Shown: positions 1 to 19,224 of the stretch, piece after piece
How the letters are laid out: the number at the start of each line of letters is the position of its first letter
How positions within the stretch are numbered: the first letter of the stretch is position 1
Source of the DNA: a virus
Virus record (IMG/VR): IMGVR_UViG_3300046532_004276
Location: 1 to 22,786 of that record
Reading direction: 5' to 3' (one strand)
DNA length: 22,786 nt
Notes under the pieces: model-generated
What the model saw: the letters and a program-made list of their open reading frames with translations, nothing else
Told to the model about the DNA's origin: nothing
Database searches by the model: none
Position numbers and translations under genes: made by a program

Positions 1-808
1 GAAGCTTAAGCTACGAAAGTAGCGAAGATAAGTGGGAGGTTACGGGGAGTGGTGGTGACTGGGATGACCTCATAGCTAACGCAAACGGTACGGCGGTAAT
101 TTGCCACGATGATGTCATTGGTGAGATAGGGCCAGTAGGACCAACAGGTCCAATAGGTCCAATAGGTCCAATAGGTCCAATAGGTCCAATAGGTCCAATA
201 GGTCCAACGGGATGCCCTACATGCGAAACGGTGTCGATTACCGTTAACGGGAGTACTATAGAGATAGCTACCCTTGACTTAAGTACCGCTTGCTGGGGGT
301 CCGCGACAGTTTACTTACGTTCTAACGGATATAAAGCTAGCGGAAGCTTAAGCTACGAAAGTAGCGAAGATAAGTGGGAGGTTACGGGGAGTGGTGGTGA
401 CTGGGATGACCTCATAGCTAACGCAAACGGTACGGCGGTAATTTGCCACGATGATGTCATTGGTGAGATGGGTCCAATAGGCCCAACAGGTCCAATAGGC
501 CCAACAGGTCCAATAGGTCCAACAGGCCCAATAGGCCCAACAGGCCCGACGGGATGCCCTACGTGCGAAACGGTGTCGATTACCGTTAACGGGAGTACTA
601 TAGAAATACCGGGAATTGACTTAAGTACCGCTTGCTGGGGGTCCGAGACAGTTTACTTACGTTCTTCTAACGGGTACAAAACTAGCGGAAGCTTAAGCTA
701 CGAAAGTAGCGAAGATAAGTGGGAGGTGGCAGGGGCTAGTTCTGATTTCTTAGATAACGCGAGCGGTTCGGCAGTAATTTGCCACGATGATATCTTTGGT
801 CTCCTAGG
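1..808 (+). repeat. Tandem repeat of 342/345 bp encoding a fibre module plus collagen arm
   Basis: Bases 1-127 match 343-469 exactly by eye, a period of 342 bp (114 codons). The third copy starts at 688, a period of 345 bp because of one extra serine codon near 663-668. The CPTC-containing start of the module recurs at 213 and 555. Copies 1 and 2 are nearly identical, while copy 3 diverges, especially after 727. This suggests recent duplication or gene conversion between the first two copies. More copies may lie upstream of the window. Confidence 0.95.
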
Positions 809-1376
809 CCCGAAAGGAGCGAAGGGGGACATTGGCCCCACTGGCCCCGTTGGACCAATTGGCCCGCGAGGCGTACTTGGCCCAATGGGACCGCGAGGCG
901 TACTTGGCCCAATGGGACCGCGAGGTATACTTGGTCCACAAGGTAATAGTATACTTGGCCCACGAGGCCCGCAAGGCTCCCCCGGAGCGAAATACGCTAT
1001 GGTCAAGTCTTCTCTAACGAGAGATCACCTAGGCCTTTATTGTACTGAAATGCCAGAGGCGATATTTGAAGATATAATTTCCTTAGAAATAAGAGGGGAA
1101 GAAACTAAGGTGAAGATTGACCCGTTTTACTTAGATGTGTGCGAGCCAGCCTCATTGAGGGTGGTAAGTATGGTATGCGATACTCCGTGTGCGTTCGGTG
1201 CAGAAATAAAGAATAACGTACTAATAGTTAAAGTAGCTGCTTGGGCAGGTAAAATCCCAACGAATGCAAATATTAAGTTGGCTGGAACAAGAAAAGGGGT
1301 TGTCGAAAGATTCCCGAGGTATTCGCAAAAAGAAGCTTCGCAAAATACTAAATTTTGGGATTCTTGGAAAGAATAG
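3..1376 (+). CDS. Collagen-like repeat protein, probable phage fibre (5' partial)
   Basis: The frame is open from the window edge, so the true start lies upstream; 457 residues are visible. A GTG at 231 lies inside a repeat and is not the start. The protein alternates non-collagen modules with Gly-X-Y arms: a partial module plus about ten triplets, a full module plus about ten triplets (alternating GPI and GPT), then a third module and a longer collagen stretch (about 790-990) with [12 protein letters not shown] and GAK triplets and one interruption. Each complete module carries four cysteines (CPTC, ACWG, ICH). The last roughly 120 residues form a globular tail with five more cysteines ([19 protein letters not shown]). 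Such chains form trimeric stalks in phage fibres. That this is a virion fibre is inferred from family knowledge. It is followed without a gap by a glycosyltransferase. Confidence 0.85.
147..209 (+). repeat. 9-bp tandem repeat (GPI codons), six perfect units plus one variant
   Basis: Six perfect copies of ggtccaata occupy 147-200, followed by the variant ggtccaacg at 201-209. They encode (Gly-Pro-Ile)6 Gly-Pro-Thr in the collagen arm. The next arm (about 471-551) has the same length but alternates GPI and GPT with mixed synonymous codons. This perfect run therefore looks recently expanded or homogenised. Length change by whole 9-bp units would keep the frame. Confidence 0.95.
870..923 (+). repeat. 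27-bp direct repeat, two perfect units, in the third collagen arm
   Basis: Two identical 27-bp units (870-896 and 897-923) encode Gly-Val-Leu-Gly-Pro-Met-Gly-Pro-Arg twice. A third, partly degenerate unit starts at 924. It keeps the collagen register and shows a second scale of duplication within the fibre gene. Confidence 0.9.
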
Positions 1377-2492
1377 ATGAAGTTCGACTTTCTTTTAAGG
1401 CTGAAAGGAGGTGGTTTTCTAGGACTGGTCGCTTCAGGGCGTAAGCGTAATTCGTCACAAATCTTAGAAATTCCTAACTTGGATATGGTAGAGGGACTGC
1501 CTTCTCTCTTGAATGAATTCCAATCACAAGACCTCACAAAGCTCCAAAATATTTTAGCGGGAAAAAATAAAGAAAAGATTGATAAGTTGGGAAAGGAACG
1601 TGAGAGGTTATACCATTTGACTCAATCCTTAATAAACTCATCTGGAGACTGCTCTCCTAAGGAGGAAAAAAATATTGAGTCTTTTTGTTTAGTGGTTAGT
1701 GGGGAGGTTAAGAGGGAGGGGCTTGTTACTTTAAGGACTATTAGGTTACTTCACGAACAGCCTATTTATGTTATAGCCGACCAAGAGACTAAGGACTTCC
1801 TCCTGCCTTCGGGCATACCAGACTTACATATAAAGGTGGATATAAATGAAAAATCTAAAAAAAGGATAATGAAAAGATTTTTCAAGGAAAGGTTTAAGAA
1901 TTTAAATACTTTTCATAGGCAGGAATATATCTTCAAGAAGATGGACGCTATGTCCTTAGCTTTAAAAAAGCATGATAATACTTTCTTCTTAGACGCGGAT
2001 ATCGTGCTGTGTGAAAAATTAAGAGTTAATTCCAATGCGGATATCGTCCTTTCCCCTCATTACTCTCCTCCGTCTAGGTTTTTCCAGAGTTTTGGAAATG
2101 GATTTTTTAATGCTGGTTATGTTTTTTGTTCCGATAAAACATTTCCTAGACATTGGCGTAGAATATACCTTACAGACTCAAGGTTTTACGAACAGCAGGG
2201 AATGGACTACATAGCGGAGAAGTATAGTGTCGATATATTTAACCAAACTCATAACGTGGGCTGGTGGAGACACGAAAGTGACGACTTCAATCTTCCCCTA
2301 AAAATAAGCTTGCCGAAAAATGTCGTGTCTTTCCACTTGCATCTTGAGGACAAATACAACTTTGGGGGTAACTCAATTGTCAAGGGTAAGAATCAGGAAA
2401 TTTTTAGAATTATGGAAGACTACTTAAAATGTAACGAAAAAAGGGAGGTCATCGACGCGATAACCTCCGTGTTTCCCAGTAAGATGGCTTAG
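1377..2492 (+). CDS. GT-A fold glycosyltransferase adjoining the collagen-like gene
   Basis: This 371-residue protein starts with the ATG directly after the fibre gene stop (TAG then ATG), with a weak purine-rich ribosome site (GGAAAG) upstream. Residues 201-211 contain a DAD motif in an FFLDAD context, the metal and nucleotide-sugar binding DXD motif of GT-A enzymes. FFNAGY (243-248), EQQGMDYI (272-279) and the histidines at 320/322 follow the usual layout of nucleotide-diphospho-sugar transferases of the GT8/GT77 kind. Residues 45-90 look coiled and have no clear role. The likely reaction is transfer of a sugar from a nucleotide donor. The acceptor is unknown, but position suggests the neighbouring Gly-Pro-Thr-rich fibre, as in bacterial BclA-type collagens whose GPT threonines are O-glycosylated. 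The gene end overlaps the convergent neighbour by four bases (TTAG). Confidence 0.75.
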   Translation: MKFDFLLRLKGGGFLGLVASGRKRNSSQILEIPNLDMVEGLPSLLNEFQSQDLTKLQNILAGKNKEKIDKLGKERERLYHLTQSLINSSGDCSPKEEKNIESFCLVVSGEVKREGLVTLRTIRLLHEQPIYVIADQETKDFLLPSGIPDLHIKVDINEKSKKRIMKRFFKERFKNLNTFHRQEYIFKKMDAMSLALKKHDNTFFLDADIVLCEKLRVNSNADIVLSPHYSPPSRFFQSFGNGFFNAGYVFCSDKTFPRHWRRIYLTDSRFYEQQGMDYIAEKYSVDIFNQTHNVGWWRHESDDFNLPLKISLPKNVVSFHLHLEDKYNFGGNSIVKGKNQEIFRIMEDYLKCNEKREVIDAITSVFPSKMA

Positions 2493-3238: not shown

Positions 3239-4399
3239 TTAAGGCTTTTCTGGCTTTTGGTCAAGCATCTTAAGTATGTATAGATTATCCAAGCTTCTCC
3301 ATATGAGGGGATCGTCTTTGAATTTTACGACCTCTCCTTTGCCTCCTATCTCCTGATTATTTTTCCATGCTGATTCGCTTGGGAATGTTTTTCCGTTAGA
3401 AAGCGTAAATTTATTTGACTTATAATAAAGGTTTTCAATTCCGTGGGAAAGGATTTTTTCTTTATCTTTATCTTTGATTGATTCGGAGAATATAAGGTCG
3501 ATGTCCAAGTAATTTATTTTCTTTTTATTTAATTGCTTAGGCGAGAGTCTAGAGAATAAGAACAGGTTTAATCCTAAATTTTTTACGTTTTCAGCGAACT
3601 TAAAGTCGTCCTTTTCCTCTACGACGTAAACCAATTGGGGAATATTTTTTTTGTATTGTTTTAAGATTTTCAAGTCAATTGGCTTGTTCGTGACTATATT
3701 AACTGGTCCTATCTCAAGTTGCTCGCGGAGTAGTTTTTCGTTGAAGATTAAATCCATCCTAAACATTATGGACTTTATATTCATGGATTCTATGCTGACT
3801 GCTTGGTCAGGAAGGGTTTCTACAAATTCTTGGCCATCGGTAAACTTTTTCCCTATATGAATTGTCTCGACGCTAGGGTCAAATTTTATATCTAATTTAC
3901 TTAAAACTTTTCTAGCTATTTGTTCAGGCTTAAGAAGTTCGTCTGGTTGTTCGGACTCAAATATAGTTTCGACCTCAGCGTTTCCTTGCCAGTACGGGGA
4001 ATGGCTCGCGTTTTTAGGGGAGTCTACCATGCATATTATCTGAGCGTTGTAAGCGTTAGCTATGTGAGCGGAAACCGCGTCTGTCGATAAGTGGAGAAGG
4101 CTATTCTTAAGTACGTAGGCTGCTTGGCCTAGGTTAATCCTCCCGTTCAGCCTGAGAGCCCCGTTGAGGTTGGGGGCAGCCTCATCTCCGAGCTGGATGA
4201 TTGAGATTCCTTTCTTCGCTAAGGGAGCGTCGAGAAAGTTTACTGTTTCTTGCCAGTTCTGGAACTTAGGAGGGCTATTCTCTCGAGTATTGTCTACGGT
4301 AATGTATTGATCGCAATCTAGTGGGAAATACTTTTCGTAGAAAAAGGGCTTAGACAACCTTAGTCCGGTCACGGCAGAAAATGATTCTAATACATGCAT
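3239..4399 (-). CDS. GT9-like glycosyltransferase C-terminal half, likely continuation of the preceding gene
   Basis: The 386-residue frame begins at an ATG one base after the stop of the upstream glycosyltransferase. Its first 150 residues look like the second half of a GT9 heptosyltransferase fold. A linker with a GL-x-L segment is followed by a beta strand (SIIQLGDE, 65-72), then the donor-site region LKNSLLHLSTDAVSAHIANA (97-116), equivalent to the GT9 'TNDSG-x-MH-x-A' region. No complete N-terminal Rossmann half is present. That half sits at the end of the upstream gene, so the two probably act as one protein, either by reinitiation or by +1 frameshifting. Residues 160-386 form an extra domain rich in Lys and Ile that I do not recognise. 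Confidence 0.55.
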   Translation of the reverse strand: MHVLESFSAVTGLRLSKPFFYEKYFPLDCDQYITVDNTRENSPPKFQNWQETVNFLDAPLAKKGISIIQLGDEAAPNLNGALRLNGRINLGQAAYVLKNSLLHLSTDAVSAHIANAYNAQIICMVDSPKNASHSPYWQGNAEVETIFESEQPDELLKPEQIARKVLSKLDIKFDPSVETIHIGKKFTDGQEFVETLPDQAVSIESMNIKSIMFRMDLIFNEKLLREQLEIGPVNIVTNKPIDLKILKQYKKNIPQLVYVVEEKDDFKFAENVKNLGLNLFLFSRLSPKQLNKKKINYLDIDLIFSESIKDKDKEKILSHGIENLYYKSNKFTLSNGKTFPSESAWKNNQEIGGKGEVVKFKDDPLIWRSLDNLYILKMLDQKPEKP

Positions 4400-4415
4400 G
4401 TTAAAGGCTTACCTC
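4400..4415 (-). other. Possible programmed +1 frameshift or stop-start reinitiation site
   Basis: Read on the minus strand, the upstream gene ends CTT TAA and the next gene starts at ATG one base later (CTTTAACATG). Reading CTT and skipping one base gives AAC ATG, which joins the two frames without another stop. This resembles the prfB (release factor 2) shift site CTT-TGA-C, with TAA in place of TGA. A GAGGT Shine-Dalgarno-like sequence (4411-4415) ends 4 bases before CTT; a stimulatory Shine-Dalgarno also precedes the prfB site. The same sequence lies 11 bases before the ATG, rather far for ordinary initiation. Shift or reinitiation cannot be decided from sequence alone. Confidence 0.4.
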
Positions 4416-6275
4416 GAGGGAAAGGCGGTCTTTTTGATTGTGTTCGTAATTTGCGGTATTTAAGTCGAAGACCACCTCGAAATCTTCTTCTTCGAGCCTC
4501 TCGATATACCCTTCTGTCCTTTCGTAGGGAGGGAGAATTTTGTGAATGAGTTCGTTAGGAGCAAAGAAATCGGCGAATGGCTTTTCGGTAGATATGTATA
4601 TATTGTGATCTGGGTAAGTATTCTTGGCGCTCTCGAGTAGGCTAGTAGCTAGGACGGCTTCTGATAGATTTATTGGAAATACGAAAAGTATTCTTTTGCC
4701 TTTATCGTCTTCGGATAAAAATTGGCTAAGACCCTGCTCTTTTATGTTTTCCTTCGCTGCAACTTGCCTAAAGTATTGCTCCACCGCTGGAGGAGTCATT
4801 CCTTCTTTGAGTTTCTTGAGCCAATGAATTAAGCCTTGGTCATCATCATCCACTTTAACCTTGAGGATATCACGGTATAAATTCTTAACCCATGTTGCTC
4901 CGTCTTGGTTAAACTCGACTTGAGCATTCGGGTCTTTCTTTTCTGGTGTTGGATATTTTTCTTCGTCTATGAGGGGGGAGTTATCTATGAAGGACTCTAG
5001 AGTTAGGCCTATGCGAGATATCGAAAAGTTCTCAATAGTCCACTCGCGGGCTTTTGCTCCAATTTCGGAGCGGGCCTCAGGAGACATTTTGTAAACTTTC
5101 TCTAGCTGCGTAGCTATGGACTCAGGTTTAGTGTTAGCTTTTCTGAAGTTCGTTCCAATTTCTCTGAACTCGTCCCATTCGAGAGCTAAGGAATGAGCTT
5201 CGGGCTCACACATTTCTTCTCCGCAGCTATAGTTGGTGACTAAGGTGATTAGCTCAGTGAGTTTAGCTTCTTGGATTGGAATTTCTTGCCCTCCCGAGGT
5301 GAAAGGATGGCAGTATGTGTCCATTAAGTTATATATTTCATTTAATTGACATTCAGTCACTCCCTTCCCTACGCTTACCGTATCTAGTGAGTTTTTCGCT
5401 CCGCAAGATTTGCACTCACAGTCTGCATTAATAAAGGACCTGACTTCGTAGCTTAGGCAATCCTCGCAAATGTAAGTAAATAATACATCTTTGGGGTTGA
5501 TGTTATTTTCTTCAATCAAATTCCTAATGTCCCACCCTTCTTTTAGGTGAGTGTGAAGTAAAAGTTTTGCTCTAGATGATGAGTTTTCGGATTTGAACTG
5601 CTTGAATCCTTTTATGAGATTAGGCACTGATTTACGTAATTGGTTCCTAAACACGAACCCAATAACGAAATCATCCTTGTCTATATTATTGTATAACCTT
5701 AGGGAATTCTTTTTGTCTTTTTCTAGTTTAAAAAAATCATCCTCCTCAAGAGCTCCGTGGAGAGTCTTGACGTTCTTGATTCCCATCTTGTGCATTTCTT
5801 TTTGCGCGAAATTGCTCCATACCCAAAAATTATCGCATTTTTTAGCTGTTTTAATTGCTGCTGGGAGGATTGGAAGCGAATCTAAGGTCGTCCATATTAC
5901 AGAAGTTATTTTATCAAACCAGCTACGCTGAGCAGCGAAATCTACTCCCCAGATATCTTGTGCAGCGATGTACACGTCGGGCTTTTCTTTCTCGATAACT
6001 TCGTCTAGCTTAAATGCGCCATAAGGAGTTATGTGTTTTAGTTTAGGGTCCCTTTCTATTAGTTGGGTTTTTTCTTTATCAGTAGGTATGCAGCCTATGG
6101 ATTTCCAAGGGGTTTTTTGGAGCTCATAGTAGTTTTCAACTATACCAGCGCAGTAGTTCACCAAATCATATTTACCAGTTTTGTACAGGTAAGTTAAAAT
6201 GGATTTAGCGTTGCGACCAAACCCAGATTTAACTAAAGAAAAATCAGTTTGGATTAAGACTTTCTTTTTCCTCAA
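4401..6275 (-). CDS. GT4-type glycosyltransferase with zinc ribbon, DUF4214-like and GT9 N-terminal segments
   Basis: This 624-residue multidomain protein starts at TTG (6273-6275), overlapping the upstream stop as TTGA, with AAGGA six bases upstream. Residues 1-430 form a GT-B glycosyltransferase. It has an N-terminal strand KVLIQTDFS, a mid-region strand VIGFVFR, and the donor motif GGQEIPIQEAK (328-338), close to the GT4 E-x7-E site. Inside the C-terminal Rossmann half is a zinc ribbon: CxxC at 270-273 and CxxC at 288-291. Residues about 458-510 match the DUF4214 pattern (NLYRDIL...GLIHWLKKL). Residues 526-624 resemble the first half of a GT9 heptosyltransferase (RILFVFPINLSEAVLATSLL). The GT9 fold stops mid-domain and continues in the next gene. 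The protein may glycosylate a surface or virion polymer; the substrate is unknown. Confidence 0.8.
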   Translation of the reverse strand: MRKKKVLIQTDFSLVKSGFGRNAKSILTYLYKTGKYDLVNYCAGIVENYYELQKTPWKSIGCIPTDKEKTQLIERDPKLKHITPYGAFKLDEVIEKEKPDVYIAAQDIWGVDFAAQRSWFDKITSVIWTTLDSLPILPAAIKTAKKCDNFWVWSNFAQKEMHKMGIKNVKTLHGALEEDDFFKLEKDKKNSLRLYNNIDKDDFVIGFVFRNQLRKSVPNLIKGFKQFKSENSSSRAKLLLHTHLKEGWDIRNLIEENNINPKDVLFTYICEDCLSYEVRSFINADCECKSCGAKNSLDTVSVGKGVTECQLNEIYNLMDTYCHPFTSGGQEIPIQEAKLTELITLVTNYSCGEEMCEPEAHSLALEWDEFREIGTNFRKANTKPESIATQLEKVYKMSPEARSEIGAKAREWTIENFSISRIGLTLESFIDNSPLIDEEKYPTPEKKDPNAQVEFNQDGATWVKNLYRDILKVKVDDDDQGLIHWLKKLKEGMTPPAVEQYFRQVAAKENIKEQGLSQFLSEDDKGKRILFVFPINLSEAVLATSLLESAKNTYPDHNIYISTEKPFADFFAPNELIHKILPPYERTEGYIERLEEEDFEVVFDLNTANYEHNQKDRLSLEVSL

Positions 6276-6759: not shown

Positions 6760-7704
6760 TTATATCGTACTATTTTTTAGCTTAAAGTCAACCAAGTACT
6801 GCTCTAGTTTGTGCTGGGGAGACCACTTAAGGATGGCTTTGGCTTTAGAGTTGTCGCAAAGCGTATCTTGAGCTTCCCCTTGCCTTGTGGGTATGTGAGT
6901 TATGTTGGTGCTGATTTTTTTAGCTATGTCTAGTATGGAAAAAGATGTGCCTGAACCTATATTAAAAACTTCTCCAAACGCATCACTATTTTCGCATGAT
7001 GCGCTGAGTAGGTTTGCTTCAACCACATCTTTTACGTGAGTAAAGTCGCGTGTCTGGAGACCACGCCCGACGACGGTGAGTGGCTCACCTTGTGAATGTT
7101 GGCGTTGGAATAAGCCTATCACCGGCGAATAGAGGCCCTTCGTTGGTTCCCTCTCGCCGTAAACATTAAAATACCTAAGAGTTATTGTCTTAAGGCCATA
7201 TATATCGTTGTACACCCTGCAAATCTCTTCCCCCGCTGTTTTAGAGACCGAGTATGGGTTTAGGCAGTCTTTTGGCATGTCTTCCGTTAACGGGGGTGTA
7301 TTTTTTCTTCCGTAAGCTGATGAGGTGGATGAGTAGATGACTTTTTCAACTTCGTTTTCTCTGCTTGCTTGAAGCACGTTGCATGTACCTACGAAATTCG
7401 TGGAGCAAGCTAGTTGGGGGGAATTTACCGTAGGTTGGATTCTGGCTTCAGCAGCTAGGTGGAATACAGTCTTTGGTTTTTCGTGAGAAAAAATCCAACT
7501 TAGAGACTGGGGGTCATTGATGTCTACTGGGTAATTTCTGGCATTGTTATTCCAGTAGAACTTTTCATTATGCTCCGCTGATTCATTGTCTACGCAAATT
7601 ACATTAACGCCGATTCTAACTAATTGGTCTACGAGGTTGCTGCCTATGAAGCCAGCTCCCCCTGTGACTAGGGCTGTTTTAGATTGTAATAGCTTTAGAT
7701 TCAT
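6760..7704 (-). CDS. NAD-dependent nucleotide-sugar epimerase/dehydratase (extended SDR)
   Basis: This 314-residue protein has full length for an extended short-chain dehydrogenase. The Rossmann motif GGAGFIG (15-21) binds NAD. VDNESAEHN (38-46) follows the second strand, SSTSSAYG (125-132) provides the catalytic Ser/Thr, and Y151-SVS-K155 is the catalytic YxxxK. LRYFNVYGE (about 176-184) is the substrate loop found in UDP-glucose and UDP-GlcNAc 4-epimerases. The most likely reaction is C4 epimerisation of a UDP-hexose or UDP-HexNAc. A 4,6-dehydratase or a GDP-sugar enzyme cannot be excluded by eye. The gene overlaps the polymerase stop (ATGA) and precedes glycosyltransferases, which fits supply of an activated sugar. 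Confidence 0.85.
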   Translation of the reverse strand: MNLKLLQSKTALVTGGAGFIGSNLVDQLVRIGVNVICVDNESAEHNEKFYWNNNARNYPVDINDPQSLSWIFSHEKPKTVFHLAAEARIQPTVNSPQLACSTNFVGTCNVLQASRENEVEKVIYSSTSSAYGRKNTPPLTEDMPKDCLNPYSVSKTAGEEICRVYNDIYGLKTITLRYFNVYGEREPTKGLYSPVIGLFQRQHSQGEPLTVVGRGLQTRDFTHVKDVVEANLLSASCENSDAFGEVFNIGSGTSFSILDIAKKISTNITHIPTRQGEAQDTLCDNSKAKAILKWSPQHKLEQYLVDFKLKNSTI

Positions 7705-10265
7705 TTTTTTAATTCAGATAGCTTGGAATATATTTTAGTGTTCTGGACGGCTATAGAGTCGGCGAAGACCACTTCGTCTTGCCTCGTGCCTGAGACTATT
7801 ACGATGTCGCCCTCTTTTGGCAGGGCTCCGTTTGACTCCCTGCAAGTCTCTAGCTTTTTTGAAAAAATCATAGTCTTAGTCGTCCCTGTTTCGTCGGAAC
7901 AAAATGCCATGAGGTATTTATTCCCGTTTCTGCTGCGACTCTGGACGACCTTATCCCCTATGTAAGATATAAATTTCACCCTTGTCCCCGCAGTCATTTC
8001 GTTTATCTGGCGAACGGTATCAAGATTTCGTGTCGTGTTGGAGAAGCAGTCCCTAAGTGTTCTGTTATACGTGTAGCCAAGTAAGTTCTTTTCGTAATAC
8101 CAATTAGCGAAGCTTTCAGATTTTCTGTTCTGAGAATAGATTTCCTTATACCCTTGAGCTTTCTTTTTTATGGTTCCCATTCTGCTTTCTTTTATAATGG
8201 GCTTGGGCTCTTTCCCCGTTTTGGAGGTTGTCATGGTTTCGGATAATCGGGTAATTATTTTCACTAGGTCAAAGTCGAGCTTTTCCCCCAGCCCAAGGAC
8301 TAAGGTCTTCTCTCTCTGAGTTAAGATGTTCCATACTTGAGCTTCGTAAGCGACCTTTGTCCTGCTTTGCTTGAATCCCTCTAGGGCTCCAGCTTGGATA
8401 AGTGCGCTTAATATCCCTATGGGTATTTCGCAATGATTAGCTGCTTCGAATATTTGAAATTTATTTGTATATTCCCCCTTGAAGTTCATAAGTTTTTCTA
8501 GAGATTTATCGGAAATGCCCTTGATGGATAGCAGTCCAAATCTGATATCATCGCCTTCGACACTGAAGTCTATTTTGGATTTAATTAAATGAGGGGGTAG
8601 CATTTTTATGCCGAAAAAGTCCATCTCTTTATGTATCTTTGAGATTTCAGAAATTGGGTCAGGTTCATGCCTCGACATTTTAAGTAAACCCAAAAAGAAC
8701 TCCTTTGGGTGCTTGAATTTTAAATATACCGTGGCAGCAGCCAGTGCTGCGTAAGAAATTGAGTGAGACTTATTGAATGAGTAGTTTGCGGAGTCTTCGA
8801 GGACTCTCCACAGCACTTCTCCGACCTCTTTATTGAGCTTGTTTTCAGAGACTTTATCTTTGATTTTCTTTTTCCACTTCCTGACCTCTGAAACTTTTTT
8901 CTTACCGACTATTCGTCTTAAAATTTCAGCTTCGTCGAGGGTGAATCCAACCTTATGAGCCATCTGCATCATTTGTTCTTGGTAGAGGCAAACTCCGCCC
9001 GTTGAGGACAAAATGTCATCGAAGAAGGGTTCTATGGATTCTTTTTCTCCGTTATTCGTATAGTTTGCGTATTGGTCTACAAAGGCTAGTGCTCCGGGTC
9101 GAGCCAGAGCTAGAACCGCGCTTAATTCGTCCAAGTTTTTGGGTCTGACTTTCTGGCAAACCCTAAAGTTGGTGTCTGCTTCAATCTGAAATAGTCCGTG
9201 AGGTGTACGCAAGTATTGTAGGTTTTCGTATATGATTTCATCATTGAAGTCTATTTCGTGAGCCTTTATATTCACTTGTTTGCATACATCATCAACCACA
9301 GAGACGGCCCTTAGTCCTAGGATGTCCAGCTTAACGTTGAAGATTGAAACCCAGTTCATATCGTAAGAGGACACGAATCCGTCTTTTTTTGACGTAAGTT
9401 CTGTGGGATAAGATTCTTCGATCTCCCCATAAGAAACAGATATAGCGGAAGGGTGAACGCCTTTATTTTTTATGAGCTTACTTATTTTAAGGGCCACTTT
9501 GTAGGCGTCTTGGTTTTCGTCACACCAAGTGCGGAAGTCAGCAACTTCTTCGTAAGCTTCTTCTAGACTCTTAACTTGCCCGAACACTTTTGGTATCATT
9601 GCGGACACCATGTTCATTTCGGCTTCAGTTTTGCCCCCCACTGTCTTGCCAGCCTCCTTTATGCAGAGCTTGCCAGTGAAGGTATTTAAGGTAAGAATCT
9701 TAGAGGTGCGACCGTGATATTTTTTTTCCAAGTATTTAATCACTTTATGGCGATTGTGGAAGCAGATGTCTATGTCTACGTCGCACATTAACGCTCCGTC
9801 TAAGTAAGTAATGCCATCTACCACCTTTTTCTTGGCGCGTATTTTAGAGACGAACCTCTCAAAGAAAAGCCCATGTTTTACTGGGTCTATTTTCGTGACT
9901 CCCAGCAAGAACAGAACTATGCTTCCAGCAGCACTTCCCCTCCCTAGCCCAACGGGAATATCTTCTTTATCGCAAAACTGAATTACGTCCCATACCATTA
10001 GTATGTAATCGACAAAGCCAAGCTCTTTAAGCGTACTGAGTTCGTGCTTTACTCTGTCGCGATATTTTTCGTAAGCTGGGCTTCCTTTTTCTAGGTCTAG
10101 CGAGGTAAATTTTTCCAGACAGGCGTACCGAAGAAAGTTGTAGTTGCTGAAGTCTCCTTTCAGTCGACTCTTCTCTACGTATTCCTGCGGAACCTCAAAG
10201 CGGGGAAGTCTTACGCCGTGAATTTCGAGGTCAATTGATTCAAATTGTTCTGAAAAATTTTTCAT
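7701..10265 (-). CDS. dnaE: DNA polymerase III alpha (family C) catalytic core lacking the PHP domain
   Basis: This 854-residue polymerase begins where an ordinary DnaE would already have passed its PHP domain. GLGRGSAAGS (106-115) is the conserved palm/finger motif. CDVDID (161-166) supplies the two metal-binding aspartates equivalent to E. coli D401 and D403 (here D164 and D166). KLDILGL (312-318) supplies the third, D314, equivalent to D555. About 15 extra residues (KKKVVDGITYLDGALM) precede the DVDID motif. Helix-hairpin-helix and OB-fold regions follow, the latter at about 735-840. The PHP domain is in a separate gene two places upstream, with the proofreading exonuclease between. Start and stop both overlap neighbours as ATGA, so the three subunits are probably made together. 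It would replicate the phage genome. Confidence 0.95.
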   Translation of the reverse strand: MKNFSEQFESIDLEIHGVRLPRFEVPQEYVEKSRLKGDFSNYNFLRYACLEKFTSLDLEKGSPAYEKYRDRVKHELSTLKELGFVDYILMVWDVIQFCDKEDIPVGLGRGSAAGSIVLFLLGVTKIDPVKHGLFFERFVSKIRAKKKVVDGITYLDGALMCDVDIDICFHNRHKVIKYLEKKYHGRTSKILTLNTFTGKLCIKEAGKTVGGKTEAEMNMVSAMIPKVFGQVKSLEEAYEEVADFRTWCDENQDAYKVALKISKLIKNKGVHPSAISVSYGEIEESYPTELTSKKDGFVSSYDMNWVSIFNVKLDILGLRAVSVVDDVCKQVNIKAHEIDFNDEIIYENLQYLRTPHGLFQIEADTNFRVCQKVRPKNLDELSAVLALARPGALAFVDQYANYTNNGEKESIEPFFDDILSSTGGVCLYQEQMMQMAHKVGFTLDEAEILRRIVGKKKVSEVRKWKKKIKDKVSENKLNKEVGEVLWRVLEDSANYSFNKSHSISYAALAAATVYLKFKHPKEFFLGLLKMSRHEPDPISEISKIHKEMDFFGIKMLPPHLIKSKIDFSVEGDDIRFGLLSIKGISDKSLEKLMNFKGEYTNKFQIFEAANHCEIPIGILSALIQAGALEGFKQSRTKVAYEAQVWNILTQREKTLVLGLGEKLDFDLVKIITRLSETMTTSKTGKEPKPIIKESRMGTIKKKAQGYKEIYSQNRKSESFANWYYEKNLLGYTYNRTLRDCFSNTTRNLDTVRQINEMTAGTRVKFISYIGDKVVQSRSRNGNKYLMAFCSDETGTTKTMIFSKKLETCRESNGALPKEGDIVIVSGTRQDEVVFADSIAVQNTKIYSKLSELKK

Positions 10266-10918
10266 ATATCTATCTGGTATTTAATCTTATCCCATACCTT
10301 AATGTTTAATTCTAAGTCAATCAGAGCGTTGTGGAGATTTTCGTAATCATGTTCGATTCCGAACTCTTGACCGAGAGCCTTTAGGTTAGTTCTTATCCCC
10401 TTGATTCTCCGGTTGTTCATGCAGTATTGATACTCCATTAAGTCCGAGTTTCTGTCATATTTAAAATTGCTTTTCACTCCGCGAGCTAACGCGTTTGTGT
10501 CGAGGACTTTACTTACTAGGTGCTTGTAGCAAAATCCGAAACGCTTATATAGGTCCTTTATCAGGTACAAATCAAATCCTAGCACGTTGTGTCCGACTAT
10601 GTAATCTGCGTCATCTAGCCATTCCTTAACGGTTGGGAAAATCTCTTCTGGAGACTTACCTTTTCTGTCTACTGTTTCTTGAGAGTATCGCGTGATGCGG
10701 GCTGCGTCGTCGCTAATTTTTAAGTTAGTGTCCCATTTTATCAAAAAATCTTTGCTATCGAGGGTTTCTGAGTCTGCTCCAGATTTTCCGCTGCGACATT
10801 TTATCATAGCTATTTGCCAAGGAAGGTTATGGCAAGAGTTTAACGCTAGGTTGAGCGTTTCACAATCCACAAAGACGTACGTGCTTTTCCTGTCGAATCT
10901 TATAAGCGGGGCTGTCAT
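10262..10918 (-). CDS. DEDDh 3'-5' proofreading exonuclease (DnaQ/epsilon-like)
   Basis: The chosen start is the ATG at 10916-10918, which overlaps the upstream stop as ATGA and gives 218 residues. A longer frame to 10984 would need a TTG and a 70-bp overlap. The four acidic residues and the histidine of the DEDDh family are visible. D18 and E20 lie in FVDCETLN, D116 in GHNVLGFD, and H196 and D201 in HNALID. The enzyme removes mispaired 3' ends. It sits between a PHP-domain gene and the polymerase core. In PolC the same exonuclease type is inserted inside the polymerase chain, so this looks like a split version of a proofreading replicase. Confidence 0.9.
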   Translation of the reverse strand: MTAPLIRFDRKSTYVFVDCETLNLALNSCHNLPWQIAMIKCRSGKSGADSETLDSKDFLIKWDTNLKISDDAARITRYSQETVDRKGKSPEEIFPTVKEWLDDADYIVGHNVLGFDLYLIKDLYKRFGFCYKHLVSKVLDTNALARGVKSNFKYDRNSDLMEYQYCMNNRRIKGIRTNLKALGQEFGIEHDYENLHNALIDLELNIKVWDKIKYQIDI

Positions 10919-11664
10919 CGTTGAAGTGCCTCCATGCAAAATTCGTTGCTGCTCATATGGTCTAAGTTCGGTTTGTCTAGGCAACTTCGGGAGTTAATAC
11001 ATCTGAACGCTAGGTAAGACTTAAAGTCATCTTTTTTCTTATAAAATATGCTCTTAACTTTTAATATGTTGTCTTTGGACTTGTTGTATTTTTGCATAGC
11101 CCTGTCTATTAGGTAGTTGAAGGGGAGGTCGTTATCTTCCGAGAGGAAAATCGGTTCACAAAAAGAGAGGTCTGGTGTGCAGGATTTACAGTTCAGGGTA
11201 TTCTGATGAATGAATGAATCATAGAATGGAATCGCCACTATTATGTCGTCAGGGGAATACTGCTCTCGAATAGACTTATAATCAGTTCTGGGGGCATAAT
11301 AAAAGCCGTCGAGACTGGCTTTGGTGTAAATTTTAATTAATTTTTTGTACCCATTTTTGTTCCTCGCGAATAAAACGACTTTCGAGGTCCCCTGAAGGGA
11401 TTCTTCGTCTTTCTGAAATAGGTCCGAGCATACATTCATGCGTAAACCAAAGATGAATTTTATTTTGTTTTCCAAACAGTTGTGGTAGGCCTGAAGGTAG
11501 CCACTCATATTGTCATCTACTAGATATAATTCTTTAAGACCGTTCTCTATACATATATCTATTATAGAGTCGGGCCCGTTACCTGAGCCTGTGGATGCTT
11601 CGTTTAGGGTTAATATGGACTTGCCTAGGCTGTAGTGAGATTTAAACAGAGGTATTGTGTCCAT
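10915..11664 (-). CDS. Stand-alone PHP domain of DNA polymerase III alpha (probably inactive)
   Basis: This 249-residue protein aligns by pattern with the N-terminal PHP region of DnaE. It has an N-terminal SHYSLGKSIL, a strand and turn ELYLVDDNMSGYLQAYHN (about 45-62), KFIFGLRMNV (69-78), then VVLFARNKNGYKKLIKIYT (about 96-114), a hallmark of DnaE. The C terminus (RCINSRSCLDKPNLDHMSS) resembles the DnaE linker just before the palm. In active PHP domains the first strand carries H-x-H and the second D-H; here they read F-K-S-H and D-D, so metal ligands seem lost, as in E. coli DnaE. It may be a structural partner of the polymerase core encoded two genes later. Confidence 0.75.
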   Translation of the reverse strand: MDTIPLFKSHYSLGKSILTLNEASTGSGNGPDSIIDICIENGLKELYLVDDNMSGYLQAYHNCLENKIKFIFGLRMNVCSDLFQKDEESLQGTSKVVLFARNKNGYKKLIKIYTKASLDGFYYAPRTDYKSIREQYSPDDIIVAIPFYDSFIHQNTLNCKSCTPDLSFCEPIFLSEDNDLPFNYLIDRAMQKYNKSKDNILKVKSIFYKKKDDFKSYLAFRCINSRSCLDKPNLDHMSSNEFCMEALQR

Positions 11665-12752: not shown

Positions 12753-13334
12753 TTATCTGAAAGGGTGACCGGAGACCCATAAAACTAAAGAGTTTCTTTT
12801 TCCTTTCGTGACGGGAGTAACTTTATGGAGCAAGAAGGACGGAAATAAGACGCAGGAGCCCATCGTTTTATCTCCAACAAACGGTTTATCCCATGTGTAA
12901 ACCTCTAGTTCTCCGCCTTCGTAGTCTTCGGGGTCGGTTAGCTGAACTACTATGCTTATTTTCCTAGAGCAGTTCCCATCAAAATCAAGATGAGCACCGT
13001 AATGGTCGCCTTTCTCCTCCCCGTTTGCGTTATAAGTTGTATACTGTAAGTCCTCCAAGAATCCAGTTAGCTCAAAGTCCCACAATTCATCATTCGCAGC
13101 GTTAACCAAGGTTAGTATCTTGTCGTAAATCCATTTACTTTGTTCTGATTGGGGAATCCATGCGGTAGAACCCTGTCTTACGGGATTATCTCCGCCACCA
13201 AAAGTCACAGCGTTGTCTTGTGGGATGTTGTCTCCCATTTTTTTTATATCAATCACTTCCTCGGGGGTAAAGGCAATGCCTCCGTAGAAACGACAAAAGG
13301 ATAATTCCCTTTTCGGCTCAAATATGTATTTCAT
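12753..13334 (-). CDS. 2-oxoglutarate/Fe(II)-dependent oxygenase (PKHD-type)
   Basis: This 193-residue protein is close to the usual length for PKHD-type hydroxylases. The iron triad is H115-L-D117 (GDHYGAHLDFD) and H170 (FPSFLLHKV). R180 in GKRNSLVLWV would bind the 2-oxoglutarate carboxylate. The core strands RKISIVVQL and GGELEVYT match the double-stranded beta helix. The enzyme hydroxylates an unknown substrate. Phage members of this family are common, and targets may be proteins, nucleic acids or sugars. A GGAG ribosome site lies eight bases before the ATG, and the start lies inside the primase end (17-bp overlap). Any link to the collagen-like fibre 11 kb away is speculative. Confidence 0.88.
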   Translation of the reverse strand: MKYIFEPKRELSFCRFYGGIAFTPEEVIDIKKMGDNIPQDNAVTFGGGDNPVRQGSTAWIPQSEQSKWIYDKILTLVNAANDELWDFELTGFLEDLQYTTYNANGEEKGDHYGAHLDFDGNCSRKISIVVQLTDPEDYEGGELEVYTWDKPFVGDKTMGSCVLFPSFLLHKVTPVTKGKRNSLVLWVSGHPFR

Positions 13335-17712: not shown

Positions 17713-18143
17713 AGAAAGTCGAATTTATCCTTTGATTTATAGGCGTTTCCCAGTTCACTGGAAATTGATTTGGGGTAATCAAGTATATCAGTTTTGTTGG
17801 GTTTTTCAAGGGTATTAAACGATTTAAAAGAGGCGTATTTTTCTTTTAGGACTTCACTCCATTTTGATTCTTTTTTAATTATGAACTTAAGGCTCGGAAA
17901 GTAGTCTCCCATATCTACGCTGCGCCAGAAATCGAATTCTGGATACTTTTTAAGCAATTTTTTAGCTATCCCTAGCTCTATAATTATTTGGTCAGCAGGG
18001 AGCTTAAAGAGGGCGTAGGGGTCTTGTATTAGTAGCCACACCAAGAACTGAGCTTCTGTGTTTATGGCGGGTGGATTTTTGAATCTTTTAAGTATTTGTA
18101 AAGACGGCTTAATTTTTCCTTTGCATTTCCTCATTGATATCAT
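17709..18143 (-). CDS. Unknown protein preceding recA
   Basis: This 144-residue basic protein has no family I can name. After a Lys/Arg-rich start (RKCKGKIKPSLQILKRFKNPP) there is a helix (NTEAQFLVWLLIQDPYALF, about 28-46), then an amphipathic Lys-rich region and a WSEVLKEKY segment. The helix with 'QDPYALF' recalls the start of DnaB N-terminal domains, where a chunk such as 'LLLxDPxAL' occurs, so it might be a small helicase- or replisome-associated protein; this is weak. It overlaps the dehydratase end by 35 bp from the ATG at 18143; the ATG at 18134 is an alternative. Its stop overlaps recA as ATGA. Confidence 0.7.
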   Translation of the reverse strand: MISMRKCKGKIKPSLQILKRFKNPPAINTEAQFLVWLLIQDPYALFKLPADQIIIELGIAKKLLKKYPEFDFWRSVDMGDYFPSLKFIIKKESKWSEVLKEKYASFKSFNTLEKPNKTDILDYPKSISSELGNAYKSKDKFDFL

Positions 18144-19224
18144 GTTTTACCATCTTTTCTACAAGGTTGTCAAAGCTATTTTTCGGCTTCCATCCTAACT
18201 CTTTCCGTATTGGGCCGGAATCCCCCAATAATAAGTTAACTTCCGCCGGTCTATAGAATTTTTCGTTGATAGCCACGTACGCTTCCTTTGTATTCTTATC
18301 TATGTACTTAGTCTGTTGCGGTATCTTAATGTAGTGACCGTCAACTAACTCTTCAACGTGGGACCATTCGCCGTTTATGCCAGCTTTAGAAAAAGCCTTA
18401 ACCACAAACTGTTCTATGGAATAAGTTTCGTTGCTAGATAGAACGTAGTCTTTAGGTGATTCTTGGTTGAGCATCATCCACACTCCCTCTACGAAGTCTT
18501 CGCTATCACTCCAATCCCTCCTAGGGGAAAGGTTACCTAGCTCAATGGGGTCAAACTTTTCCTTATTCTTTAATGCTTTATAAATTCTAGCGACGCCTTT
18601 CGTTATCTTCCTAGTGACGAACTCCTCTCCTCTTTTAGTTCCTTCGTGGTTAAAGAGTATCCCATGAACGGCGTATAGTCCGTAAGATTCCCTGTAGACC
18701 TTAACTAGGTGTCTAGCTGCTGCCTTGGCTGCTCCGTATGGGCTGCGGGGCTTTACGGGGTGTTTTATGTCTTGGGGGACATAGTCTACGTCCCCAAACT
18801 CTTCGCTGCTTCCTGCGCTGTAGAATTTACACTTTGGGGCGTGCTCTTTGATGGCCTCCAAACATCTCAGAACTCCCATCGCGTTTGTATCGAAGACTTG
18901 CTCGGGCATTTTCCAACTTACGCCTACGAAGGAATTAGCAGCGAAATTTATGAAAAAATCTGGCTCGATTTGTTTAACTAGCCCAGTAATGCTAACTGAA
19001 TCAGTAAGGTCTCCTTCTACGAATTCAAAATTGGGATCGCGCTTGAAAAGCTCGCAATTCTTGAGGTTGGGATTCGCGGTCCTTCTGACCATTCCGAAGA
19101 TGGAGTAGGGCTCTTTTGGGGCCTCGTCGTGATACCCTATCCCTGCGTTAAGTCGGGTTAGGAACTCGCACATATTTGCGCCGTCTTGGCCCGTAACTCC
19201 TGTAATCAACACCTTTTTTCCCAT
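18109..19224 (-). CDS. gmd: GDP-mannose 4,6-dehydratase-like enzyme
   Basis: This 371-residue protein has the length and motifs of GMD. NAD(P) binding is by GVTGQDG (9-15), followed by a gap typical of GMD before GMVRR (44-48). The remaining signatures are NSFVGVSW (97-104), GSSEEFG (138-144, catalytic Ser and Glu), Y163-GAA-K167 and FNHEG-x-x-RGEEFVTRKIT (191-208). 'LGNLSPRRDW' is the usual GMD substrate segment. The reaction would convert GDP-mannose to GDP-4-keto-6-deoxymannose, precursor of GDP-fucose, GDP-rhamnose or amino sugars. No reductase for the second step is certain in this window; the SDR at 6760-7704 is a weak candidate. An insertion near residues 24-40 is longer than usual. 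Confidence 0.9.
   Translation of the reverse strand: MGKKVLITGVTGQDGANMCEFLTRLNAGIGYHDEAPKEPYSIFGMVRRTANPNLKNCELFKRDPNFEFVEGDLTDSVSITGLVKQIEPDFFINFAANSFVGVSWKMPEQVFDTNAMGVLRCLEAIKEHAPKCKFYSAGSSEEFGDVDYVPQDIKHPVKPRSPYGAAKAAARHLVKVYRESYGLYAVHGILFNHEGTKRGEEFVTRKITKGVARIYKALKNKEKFDPIELGNLSPRRDWSDSEDFVEGVWMMLNQESPKDYVLSSNETYSIEQFVVKAFSKAGINGEWSHVEELVDGHYIKIPQQTKYIDKNTKEAYVAINEKFYRPAEVNLLLGDSGPIRKELGWKPKNSFDNLVEKMVKHDINEEMQRKN

What the first reader, a model, noticed from the sequence alone, without database searches (positions are those of the whole stretch)
3..2492. Gly-Pro-Thr fibre gene fused end to start with a glycosyltransferase gene
The collagen-like fibre stop is directly followed by the ATG of a DXD glycosyltransferase. 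The repeats are rich in Thr at the Y position (GPT), the residue glycosylated in BclA-type bacterial collagens. The same genome segment encodes a GDP-mannose dehydratase, a sugar epimerase, a GT4/GT9 protein and a PKHD-type oxygenase. Together they could form a phage system that modifies its own collagen-like fibre. The prolines sit in the X position, so classical Y-position prolyl hydroxylation is less likely than Thr or Lys modification.
Basis: inference. Interest (0 to 1): 0.6.

Follow-up and report, generated by a model that had tools for sequence, protein, structure and literature searches.

The report
Phage collagen fibre with coupled sugar-transferase
An uncultured phage encodes a collagen-like fibre whose gene runs straight into a gene for a sugar-adding enzyme of an undescribed family, and in related phages other sugar-adding enzymes, some fused to a sulfate-adding domain, take that place, which suggests (but does not prove) that these phages decorate their own fibres.

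Summary
In detail: a collagen-like ORF (3..1376, open at the contig edge) ends in TAG and the next base starts a 371-aa DxD transferase (1377..2492). The transferase matches no curated family. Its model is a GT-A fold closest to glycogenin and LgtC (family GT8), with DxD and SFHxH kept in 28 homologues. The link is instead to fibres with one C-terminal domain. Behind it sit this enzyme (4 loci), a fucosyltransferase plus this enzyme (1), a GT2 enzyme (1), or no transferase (4). The GMD, epimerase and GT4-like genes also occur in relatives that lack the enzyme. Homologues elsewhere are often fused to a sulfotransferase and lie in virion-gene clusters without collagen. Best reading: a fibre-coupled enzyme that glycosylates the fibre or another virion protein; the main rival is host-surface modification, published for similar pelagimyophage genes. 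New variant of a known kind.

The parts
3..1376 (+). collagen-like fibre ORF, 457 aa visible, open at 5' contig edge
   Evidence: Pfam Collagen E 2.7e-15; tail fibre PHROGs
1..727 (+). 342-bp near-identical tandem repeat units, each a collagen stretch plus a ~70-aa [18 protein letters not shown] domain
126..207 (+). GXY repeat stretch 1 (mostly GPI)
471..547 (+). GXY repeat stretch 2 (GPI GPT alternating)
850..938 (+). tandem core of GXY stretch 3 (GPRGVLGPM type)
987..1373 (+). fibre C-terminal domain (KYAxV..CxEMPExxFxD..FWxSWK), shared by 10 non-redundant viral loci counting the window
1366..1371 (+). GGAAAG, possible Shine-Dalgarno of the transferase, inside the codons of the conserved fibre end SWK
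   Evidence: sequence
1377..2492 (+). 371-aa GT8-like glycosyltransferase, undescribed family
1992..2000 (+). DxD (D206-A-D208), invariant
2334..2342 (+). H320-L-H322 of the SFHxH motif, invariant; probable third metal ligand as in GT8
   Evidence: ligand role inferred from GT8
2444..2468 (-). terminator-like hairpin for the convergent minus-strand genes, inside the 3' end of the transferase ORF
3239..4399 (-). weak GT9-like protein (not part of the proposed unit)
4401..6275 (-). GT4-like protein, conserved in 8 of 12 related records with or without the transferase (not part of the unit)
6760..7704 (-). nucleotide-sugar epimerase/dehydratase (not part of the unit)
12753..13334 (-). PKHD-type 2OG-Fe(II) oxygenase (not shown to be part of the unit)
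18109..19224 (-). GDP-mannose 4,6-dehydratase-like protein (not part of the unit)

Best explanation
The gene pair is probably a late virion unit: the fibre (collagen stalk plus a conserved C-terminal domain) is translated and its downstream neighbour, a GT-A, GT8-like, probably retaining glycosyltransferase, is made with it by coupled translation. The enzyme most likely transfers a sugar from a UDP-sugar onto a virion protein during assembly, most simply the fibre itself (C-terminal domain or inter-repeat domains rather than GPT threonines). In relatives the sugar would be extended or capped by a fucosyltransferase or sulfated by a fused sulfotransferase domain. The effect would be to change adsorption or shield the fibre. 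Shown here: the adjacency, its recurrence, the fold, the conserved motifs, the exchange of transferase families behind the same fibre domain, the fused sulfotransferase fold. Inferred: catalytic activity, donor, acceptor, late expression, benefit.
For: Abutting junction TAG|ATG with GGAAAG upstream, repeated in L003. Five loci with this fibre domain have the next gene within -8 to +4 nt of the fibre stop although the genes differ: GT8-like (window, L025), GT10 (L055), GT2 (L057), a small ORF and then GT8-like-sulfotransferase (L024). Control: 49 genes directly behind GPT-collagen ORFs from unselected viral contigs hold no Pfam glycosyltransferase and none of this family, against 4 of 8 lineages with this fibre domain (Fisher p 1.8e-4; 2 of 6 loci not used to build the profile, p 0.01). 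Fold: glycogenin Z 16.5, LgtC 16.2, LARGE1 15.3, UGGT 15.2; DxD and SFHxH invariant in 28 sequences. Homologues lie in virion-gene clusters: near head-tail adaptor, head closure and major head protein (L007), three genes after a major head protein (L034), near an L-shaped tail fibre assembly homologue (L060). Purifying selection: codon-position differences 118/69/204 between window and L004. No transmembrane stretch (highest 19-aa Kyte-Doolittle mean 0.98).
Against: No acceptor is identified and nothing shows that the fibre is glycosylated. In L004 the genes are 66 nt apart. Four loci with the same fibre domain have no transferase behind it (L054, L056, L061, L062). Most of the enzyme family lies in operons without collagen and the collagen-linked members do not form one clade. 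The slot statistic rests on few lineages, and four of the loci seeded the profile. The window contig is a fragment.
Confidence: 0.47

Rival explanations
1. The transferase modifies the host envelope (O-chain of LPS or another surface glycan) during infection, to block superinfection or stop progeny from binding debris; its place beside the fibre reflects co-inheritance of host-recognition genes.
For: Published reading for pelagimyophages, whose host-recognition cluster between VrlC and the neck gene holds tail fibres and many glycosyltransferases, GT8 most often (PMC7029224). LgtC, one of the closest folds, is an LPS galactosyltransferase (function from general knowledge). The lineage carries a sugar-nucleotide toolkit (GMD, epimerase; GDP-fucose synthase and UDP-galactopyranose mutase in relatives).
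Against: Tight coupling to a structural gene predicts late expression, too late for superinfection exclusion (inference). No membrane segment. Transferases in the window's other cluster are in a different, convergent operon and are kept in relatives without this enzyme. The slot is specific to one fibre C-terminal domain rather than to collagen fibres at large.
Confidence: 0.33
2. A mobile host-recognition cassette: transferases are swapped in and out of the position behind the fibre by recombination at the fibre end, with no biochemical link to the fibre.
For: Non-homologous occupants of the slot, including no gene (L056) and a tmRNA on the other strand (L054); the fibre carries long near-identical repeats that could promote recombination.
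Against: Occupants behind this fibre domain are mostly glycosyltransferases from three unrelated families, whereas genes behind unselected GPT fibres include none in 49.
Confidence: 0.13
3. The transferase glycosylates phage DNA bases.
For: Glycosyltransferases in phages are often DNA-modifying (general knowledge; also discussed in PMC12619734).
Against: The gene is coupled to a fibre gene and its relatives lie in virion clusters, often fused to sulfotransferases; its fold is nearest to GT-A transferases that act on proteins, lipids and oligosaccharides.
Confidence: 0.04
4. BclA-type system as proposed: the enzyme glycosylates Thr in the Y position of GPT repeats, with a dedicated sugar-nucleotide set.
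For: 25 GPT in 100 triplets in the longer copy L003; BclA is glycosylated (PMC8968730).
Against: L004 has 2 GPT of 60 and L025 2 of 47 with the enzyme, L054 has 50 of 177 without it; none of 80 GPT-rich loci carries it; the sugar-nucleotide genes do not track the enzyme.
Confidence: 0.03

Closest known systems
Host-recognition clusters of pelagimyophages and cyanomyophages (PMC7029224)
   Same: Tail fibres, collagen repeats and GT8-type transferases occur in the same variable structural region; L024, L025, L027 and L028 have fibre, transferase and then small conserved genes in one strand-consistent run.
   Different: Here the enzyme belongs to no Pfam/PHROGs/NCBIfam family, is coupled to the stop of one defined fibre type, is often fused to a sulfotransferase, and no isolate phage record searched has it.
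Virion glycosylation in mycobacteriophages (Freeman et al. 2023, as described in PMC12619734)
   Same: Phage proteins of the particle carry glycans.
   Different: There the modified proteins are capsid and tail tube subunits and the glycans were observed; here the candidate is a collagen fibre and nothing has been measured.
Mimivirus collagen modification (L230, R699; PMC9546862)
   Same: A virus encodes both collagen-like proteins and collagen-directed glycosyltransferases using UDP-glucose.
   Different: Those act on hydroxylysine and resemble LH/PLOD enzymes; here Lys is 7% of Y residues and no sequence match to such enzymes was found.
GT8 glycosyltransferases (glycogenin, LgtC, GlyE, LARGE1)
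   Same: GT-A fold, DxD, C-terminal His motif; Z 14.5-16.5.
   Different: 10-13% identity over the fold; no Pfam Glyco_transf_8 match; extra N-terminal ~97 residues without a confident model.
BclA exosporium collagen
   Same: Collagen-like stalk with C-terminal domain.
   Different: Ile, Leu, Gln or Ala are common Y residues in this group; no relation between GPT content and presence of the enzyme.

Membership tests
GT8 (glycogenin/LgtC family) | GT-A fold of the GT8 type | tested here: met
   AlphaFold2 core 98-368, glycogenin Z 16.5 (rmsd 4.0, 227 aligned), LgtC Z 16.2 (rmsd 3.6, 227 aligned); other GT-A families (UGGT, alpha-1,3-galactosyltransferase) also match, at somewhat lower Z
GT8 (glycogenin/LgtC family) | DxD plus C-terminal His metal ligand | tested here: inconclusive
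   D206xD208 and SFH320xH invariant in 28 sequences; metal geometry was not examined
GT8 (glycogenin/LgtC family) | sequence match to the family profile | tested here: not met
   no Glyco_transf_8 match at E 0.1 in Pfam, none in NCBIfam at E 1; so 'works like GT8', not filed as a member
BclA-type glycosylated collagen system | Thr-rich Y positions as sugar acceptors, tracking with the transferase | tested here: not met
BclA-type glycosylated collagen system | glycan on the collagen-like protein | not testable with these tools
   needs mass spectrometry
Phage virion glycosylation (mycobacteriophage type) | phage-encoded transferase beside virion genes | tested here: met
Phage virion glycosylation (mycobacteriophage type) | measured glycan on a virion protein | not testable with these tools
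   no virions
Pelagimyophage host-recognition cluster | region between VrlC and the gp14 neck gene with fibres and transferases | tested here: inconclusive
   the window contig ends inside the fibre, so upstream neighbours are unknown; VrlC and gp14 were not identified in the relatives L024, L025, L027, L028 (PHROGs gave no match for the L024 and L060 genes behind the transferase); L007 has head-tail adaptor and head closure genes next to the enzyme
Mimivirus-type collagen hydroxylysine glycosylation | LH/PLOD-like transferase sequence | tested here: inconclusive
   no relevant match among PDB sequences; fold libraries list other GT-A enzymes first
Sulfotransferase (fused domain of homologues, not in the window) | PAPS sulfotransferase fold | tested here: met
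   L026 domain pLDDT 90; nearly all of the 50 best second-look entries are sulfotransferase-fold proteins, heparan sulfate 2-O-sulfotransferase Z 12.2 (rmsd 3.7, 195 aligned); no Pfam sulfotransferase match at its cut-off

The most novel reading that the evidence does not exclude
A set of uncultured phages builds sulfated glycans onto its own virion fibres: a GT8-like transferase, fused or adjacent to a sulfotransferase in many members and joined by a fucosyltransferase in one, is made together with a collagen-like fibre and decorates it.
Probability: 0.13. Interest if true: 0.8.

Novelty: new variant of a known kind. Interest (0 to 1): 0.45.

Why it matters
Glycosyltransferases are common in phage host-recognition regions but their targets are mostly guessed, usually as host LPS or DNA. 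A transferase that abuts one fibre type, and that is exchanged for unrelated transferases behind the same fibre domain, makes a specific and cheap test possible (co-express two genes, weigh the fibre). If the fibre is the acceptor, phage collagen-like fibres become a bacterial-virus counterpart of the modified collagens of mimivirus, and the fused sulfotransferases would point to a chemistry not reported for phage particles in the papers searched.

Tried and rejected
Thr-in-GPT as the target (rejected by L004, L025, L054 and the 80-locus control). The sugar-nucleotide and GT4/GT9 genes as part of the unit (rejected: kept in relatives without the enzyme). The oxygenase as partner of this fibre (only window/G001, G002, G012). 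A clade in which all members sit beside collagen (not found). Isolate phages with the enzyme or the fibre domain: none. Window DNA in isolate phages: none. Sequence matches to solved structures for the enzyme and for the sulfotransferase domain: nothing significant; only folds helped. A shared N-terminal peptide (MK[FY]..L..GGGF) between the window enzyme and the L055 fucosyltransferase: seen, too short to interpret. Sigma-70 promoter scan around the junction: no more than expected by chance. Full text of the mycobacteriophage glycosylation paper is not held.

Full report
Observation. The window is a whole IMG/VR-type virus contig of 22,786 bases, a fragment. Its first ORF (3..1376, open at the contig edge) holds three collagen stretches and two 342-bp near-identical repeat units. 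The stop is at 1374-1376 and an ATG at 1377 begins a 371-aa ORF. A second contig, L003 (39 kb, 99.9% identical), has the same junction and 217 more residues of fibre. The window, L003 and L004 contigs all break inside the repeats, so the fibre is longer than seen.

The enzyme. It matches nothing significant in Pfam, PHROGs, NCBIfam, PDB sequences or isolate phages. Viral-contig profile searches found about 30 homologues. In 28 aligned sequences D206, D208, S318, H320 and H322 are invariant. The AlphaFold2 model (mean pLDDT 78.7; core 98-368 best, the first ~97 residues poor) matches GT-A enzymes, best glycogenin (Z 16.5) and LgtC (Z 16.2), then LARGE1 and UGGT. I read it as a GT8-like, UDP-sugar-dependent transferase; the sugar is unknown and the donor class is inferred from the fold. 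Codon differences between window and L004 (118/69/204 by position) show purifying selection, although it changes faster than its neighbours.

The fibre. Its last 129 residues (KYAxV...CxEMPExxFxD...FWxSWK) form a domain found in 10 non-redundant viral loci counting the window. What follows it differs: the GT8-like enzyme in window and L004; the same enzyme fused to a sulfotransferase in L025, and in L024 after an 86-aa ORF; a GT10 fucosyltransferase and then the GT8-like enzyme in L055; a GT2 enzyme in L057/L058; a tmRNA on the other strand in L054; nothing comparable in L056, L061 and L062. Whole contigs of L054, L056 and L057 lack the GT8-like enzyme; L061's contig has one elsewhere. In five of six occupied cases the next gene starts within -8 to +4 nt of the fibre stop, and the codons of the conserved SWK end supply a GGAA-type ribosome site (sequence). 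L004 is the exception with 66 nt.

Controls. A scan for four consecutive GPT codons returned 120 stretches, of which the 80 listed loci were used (78 with a collagen ORF). None carries the enzyme, the sulfotransferase domain or the fibre C-terminal domain. The 49 genes directly behind those fibres include no Pfam glycosyltransferase. Against that, 4 of 8 lineages with the C-terminal domain have a transferase in the slot (p 1.8e-4; 2 of 6 among loci not used to build the profile, p 0.01). The numbers are small, and divergent transferases in the control would escape Pfam. Thr content does not track the enzyme: GPT is 19-25% in window/L003, 3% in L004, 21% in L024, 4% in L025, all with the enzyme, but 28% in L054 without it.

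The rest of the window. The GT4-like protein is found in 8 of 12 related records, close GMD homologues in 6 and close epimerase homologues (44% identity or more) in 6, including records without the enzyme. They lie in a convergent run with replication genes. They are lineage genes and need not serve the fibre. Relatives add GDP-fucose synthase and UDP-galactopyranose mutase (scores just under the NCBIfam cut-offs).

The wider family. Homologues sit in three kinds of place: beside collagen-type fibres; in a virion operon with VWA and metallophosphoesterase proteins and no collagen (L039, L041-L052); and behind head genes (L034-L038, L053; L034 has a major head protein three genes upstream). Sulfotransferases recur: fused in nine loci (L007/L029, L024, L025, L027, L028, L030, L031, L032, L070), next door in L026 and L036, and within a few genes in L033 and L034 (L037, L038 and L053 by sequence similarity only). 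The fused type folds as a sulfotransferase. The tree does not make collagen-linked members one clade, so the collagen link is not a property of the whole family.

Mechanism. Fibre and enzyme appear to be one unit, probably late. The likeliest acceptor is the fibre or another virion protein; GPT threonines are not favoured. The published alternative for GT8-type transferases in pelagimyophage host-recognition clusters is host O-chain modification (PMC7029224). Phage virion glycosylation is described for mycobacteriophages (in PMC12619734), and viral collagen glycosylation for mimivirus (PMC9546862), so the proposed function has precedents of both kinds. I give the virion reading 0.47 and the host-surface reading 0.33.

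Noticed in passing
window 12753-13334; control loci L075, L077, L080, L092, L098, L109, L129, L143: Homologues of the window's PKHD-type 2OG-Fe(II) oxygenase are concentrated in the first two same-strand genes downstream of GPT-collagen fibres in unselected viral contigs: 8 of 98 downstream ORFs, 0 of 95 upstream, 2 of 403 elsewhere in the loci (Fisher p 1.4e-5). This hints at hydroxylation of phage collagen-like fibres; in the window the gene is 11 kb away on the other strand.
   Followed up: partly
L024, L025, L027, L028, L029, L030, L031, L032, L070: The transferase family is fused at its C-terminus to a sulfotransferase-fold domain that no Pfam model detects at its cut-off.
   Followed up: yes
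L054:6410-6814 (-): A phage tmRNA gene (tag ANNNVDMAPSLDEADAILAKFGWAEEAAVAA) lies in the gap behind the collagen fibre of a relative.
   Followed up: no
window 7701-11664 (-): The DNA polymerase III alpha subunit appears split into two ORFs (10915-11664 and 7701-10265) with a 240-aa exonuclease-like ORF (10262-10984) between them; the same order is seen in L003 and L004 contigs (roles of the two smaller ORFs are my reading).
   Followed up: no
window 2444-2468 (-): A terminator-like hairpin oriented for the minus-strand genes is inside the coding 3' end of the transferase and is kept in L004.
   Followed up: no
L053: One homologue lies on a contig of an uncultured Verrucomicrobia genome assembly (AG-908-P09), a possible host hint for that branch of the family.
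   Followed up: no
L071, L072, L073: Related phage contigs encode GMD with GDP-L-fucose synthase (L071, L072), and UDP-galactopyranose mutase near a sulfotransferase-like ORF (L073).
   Followed up: partly
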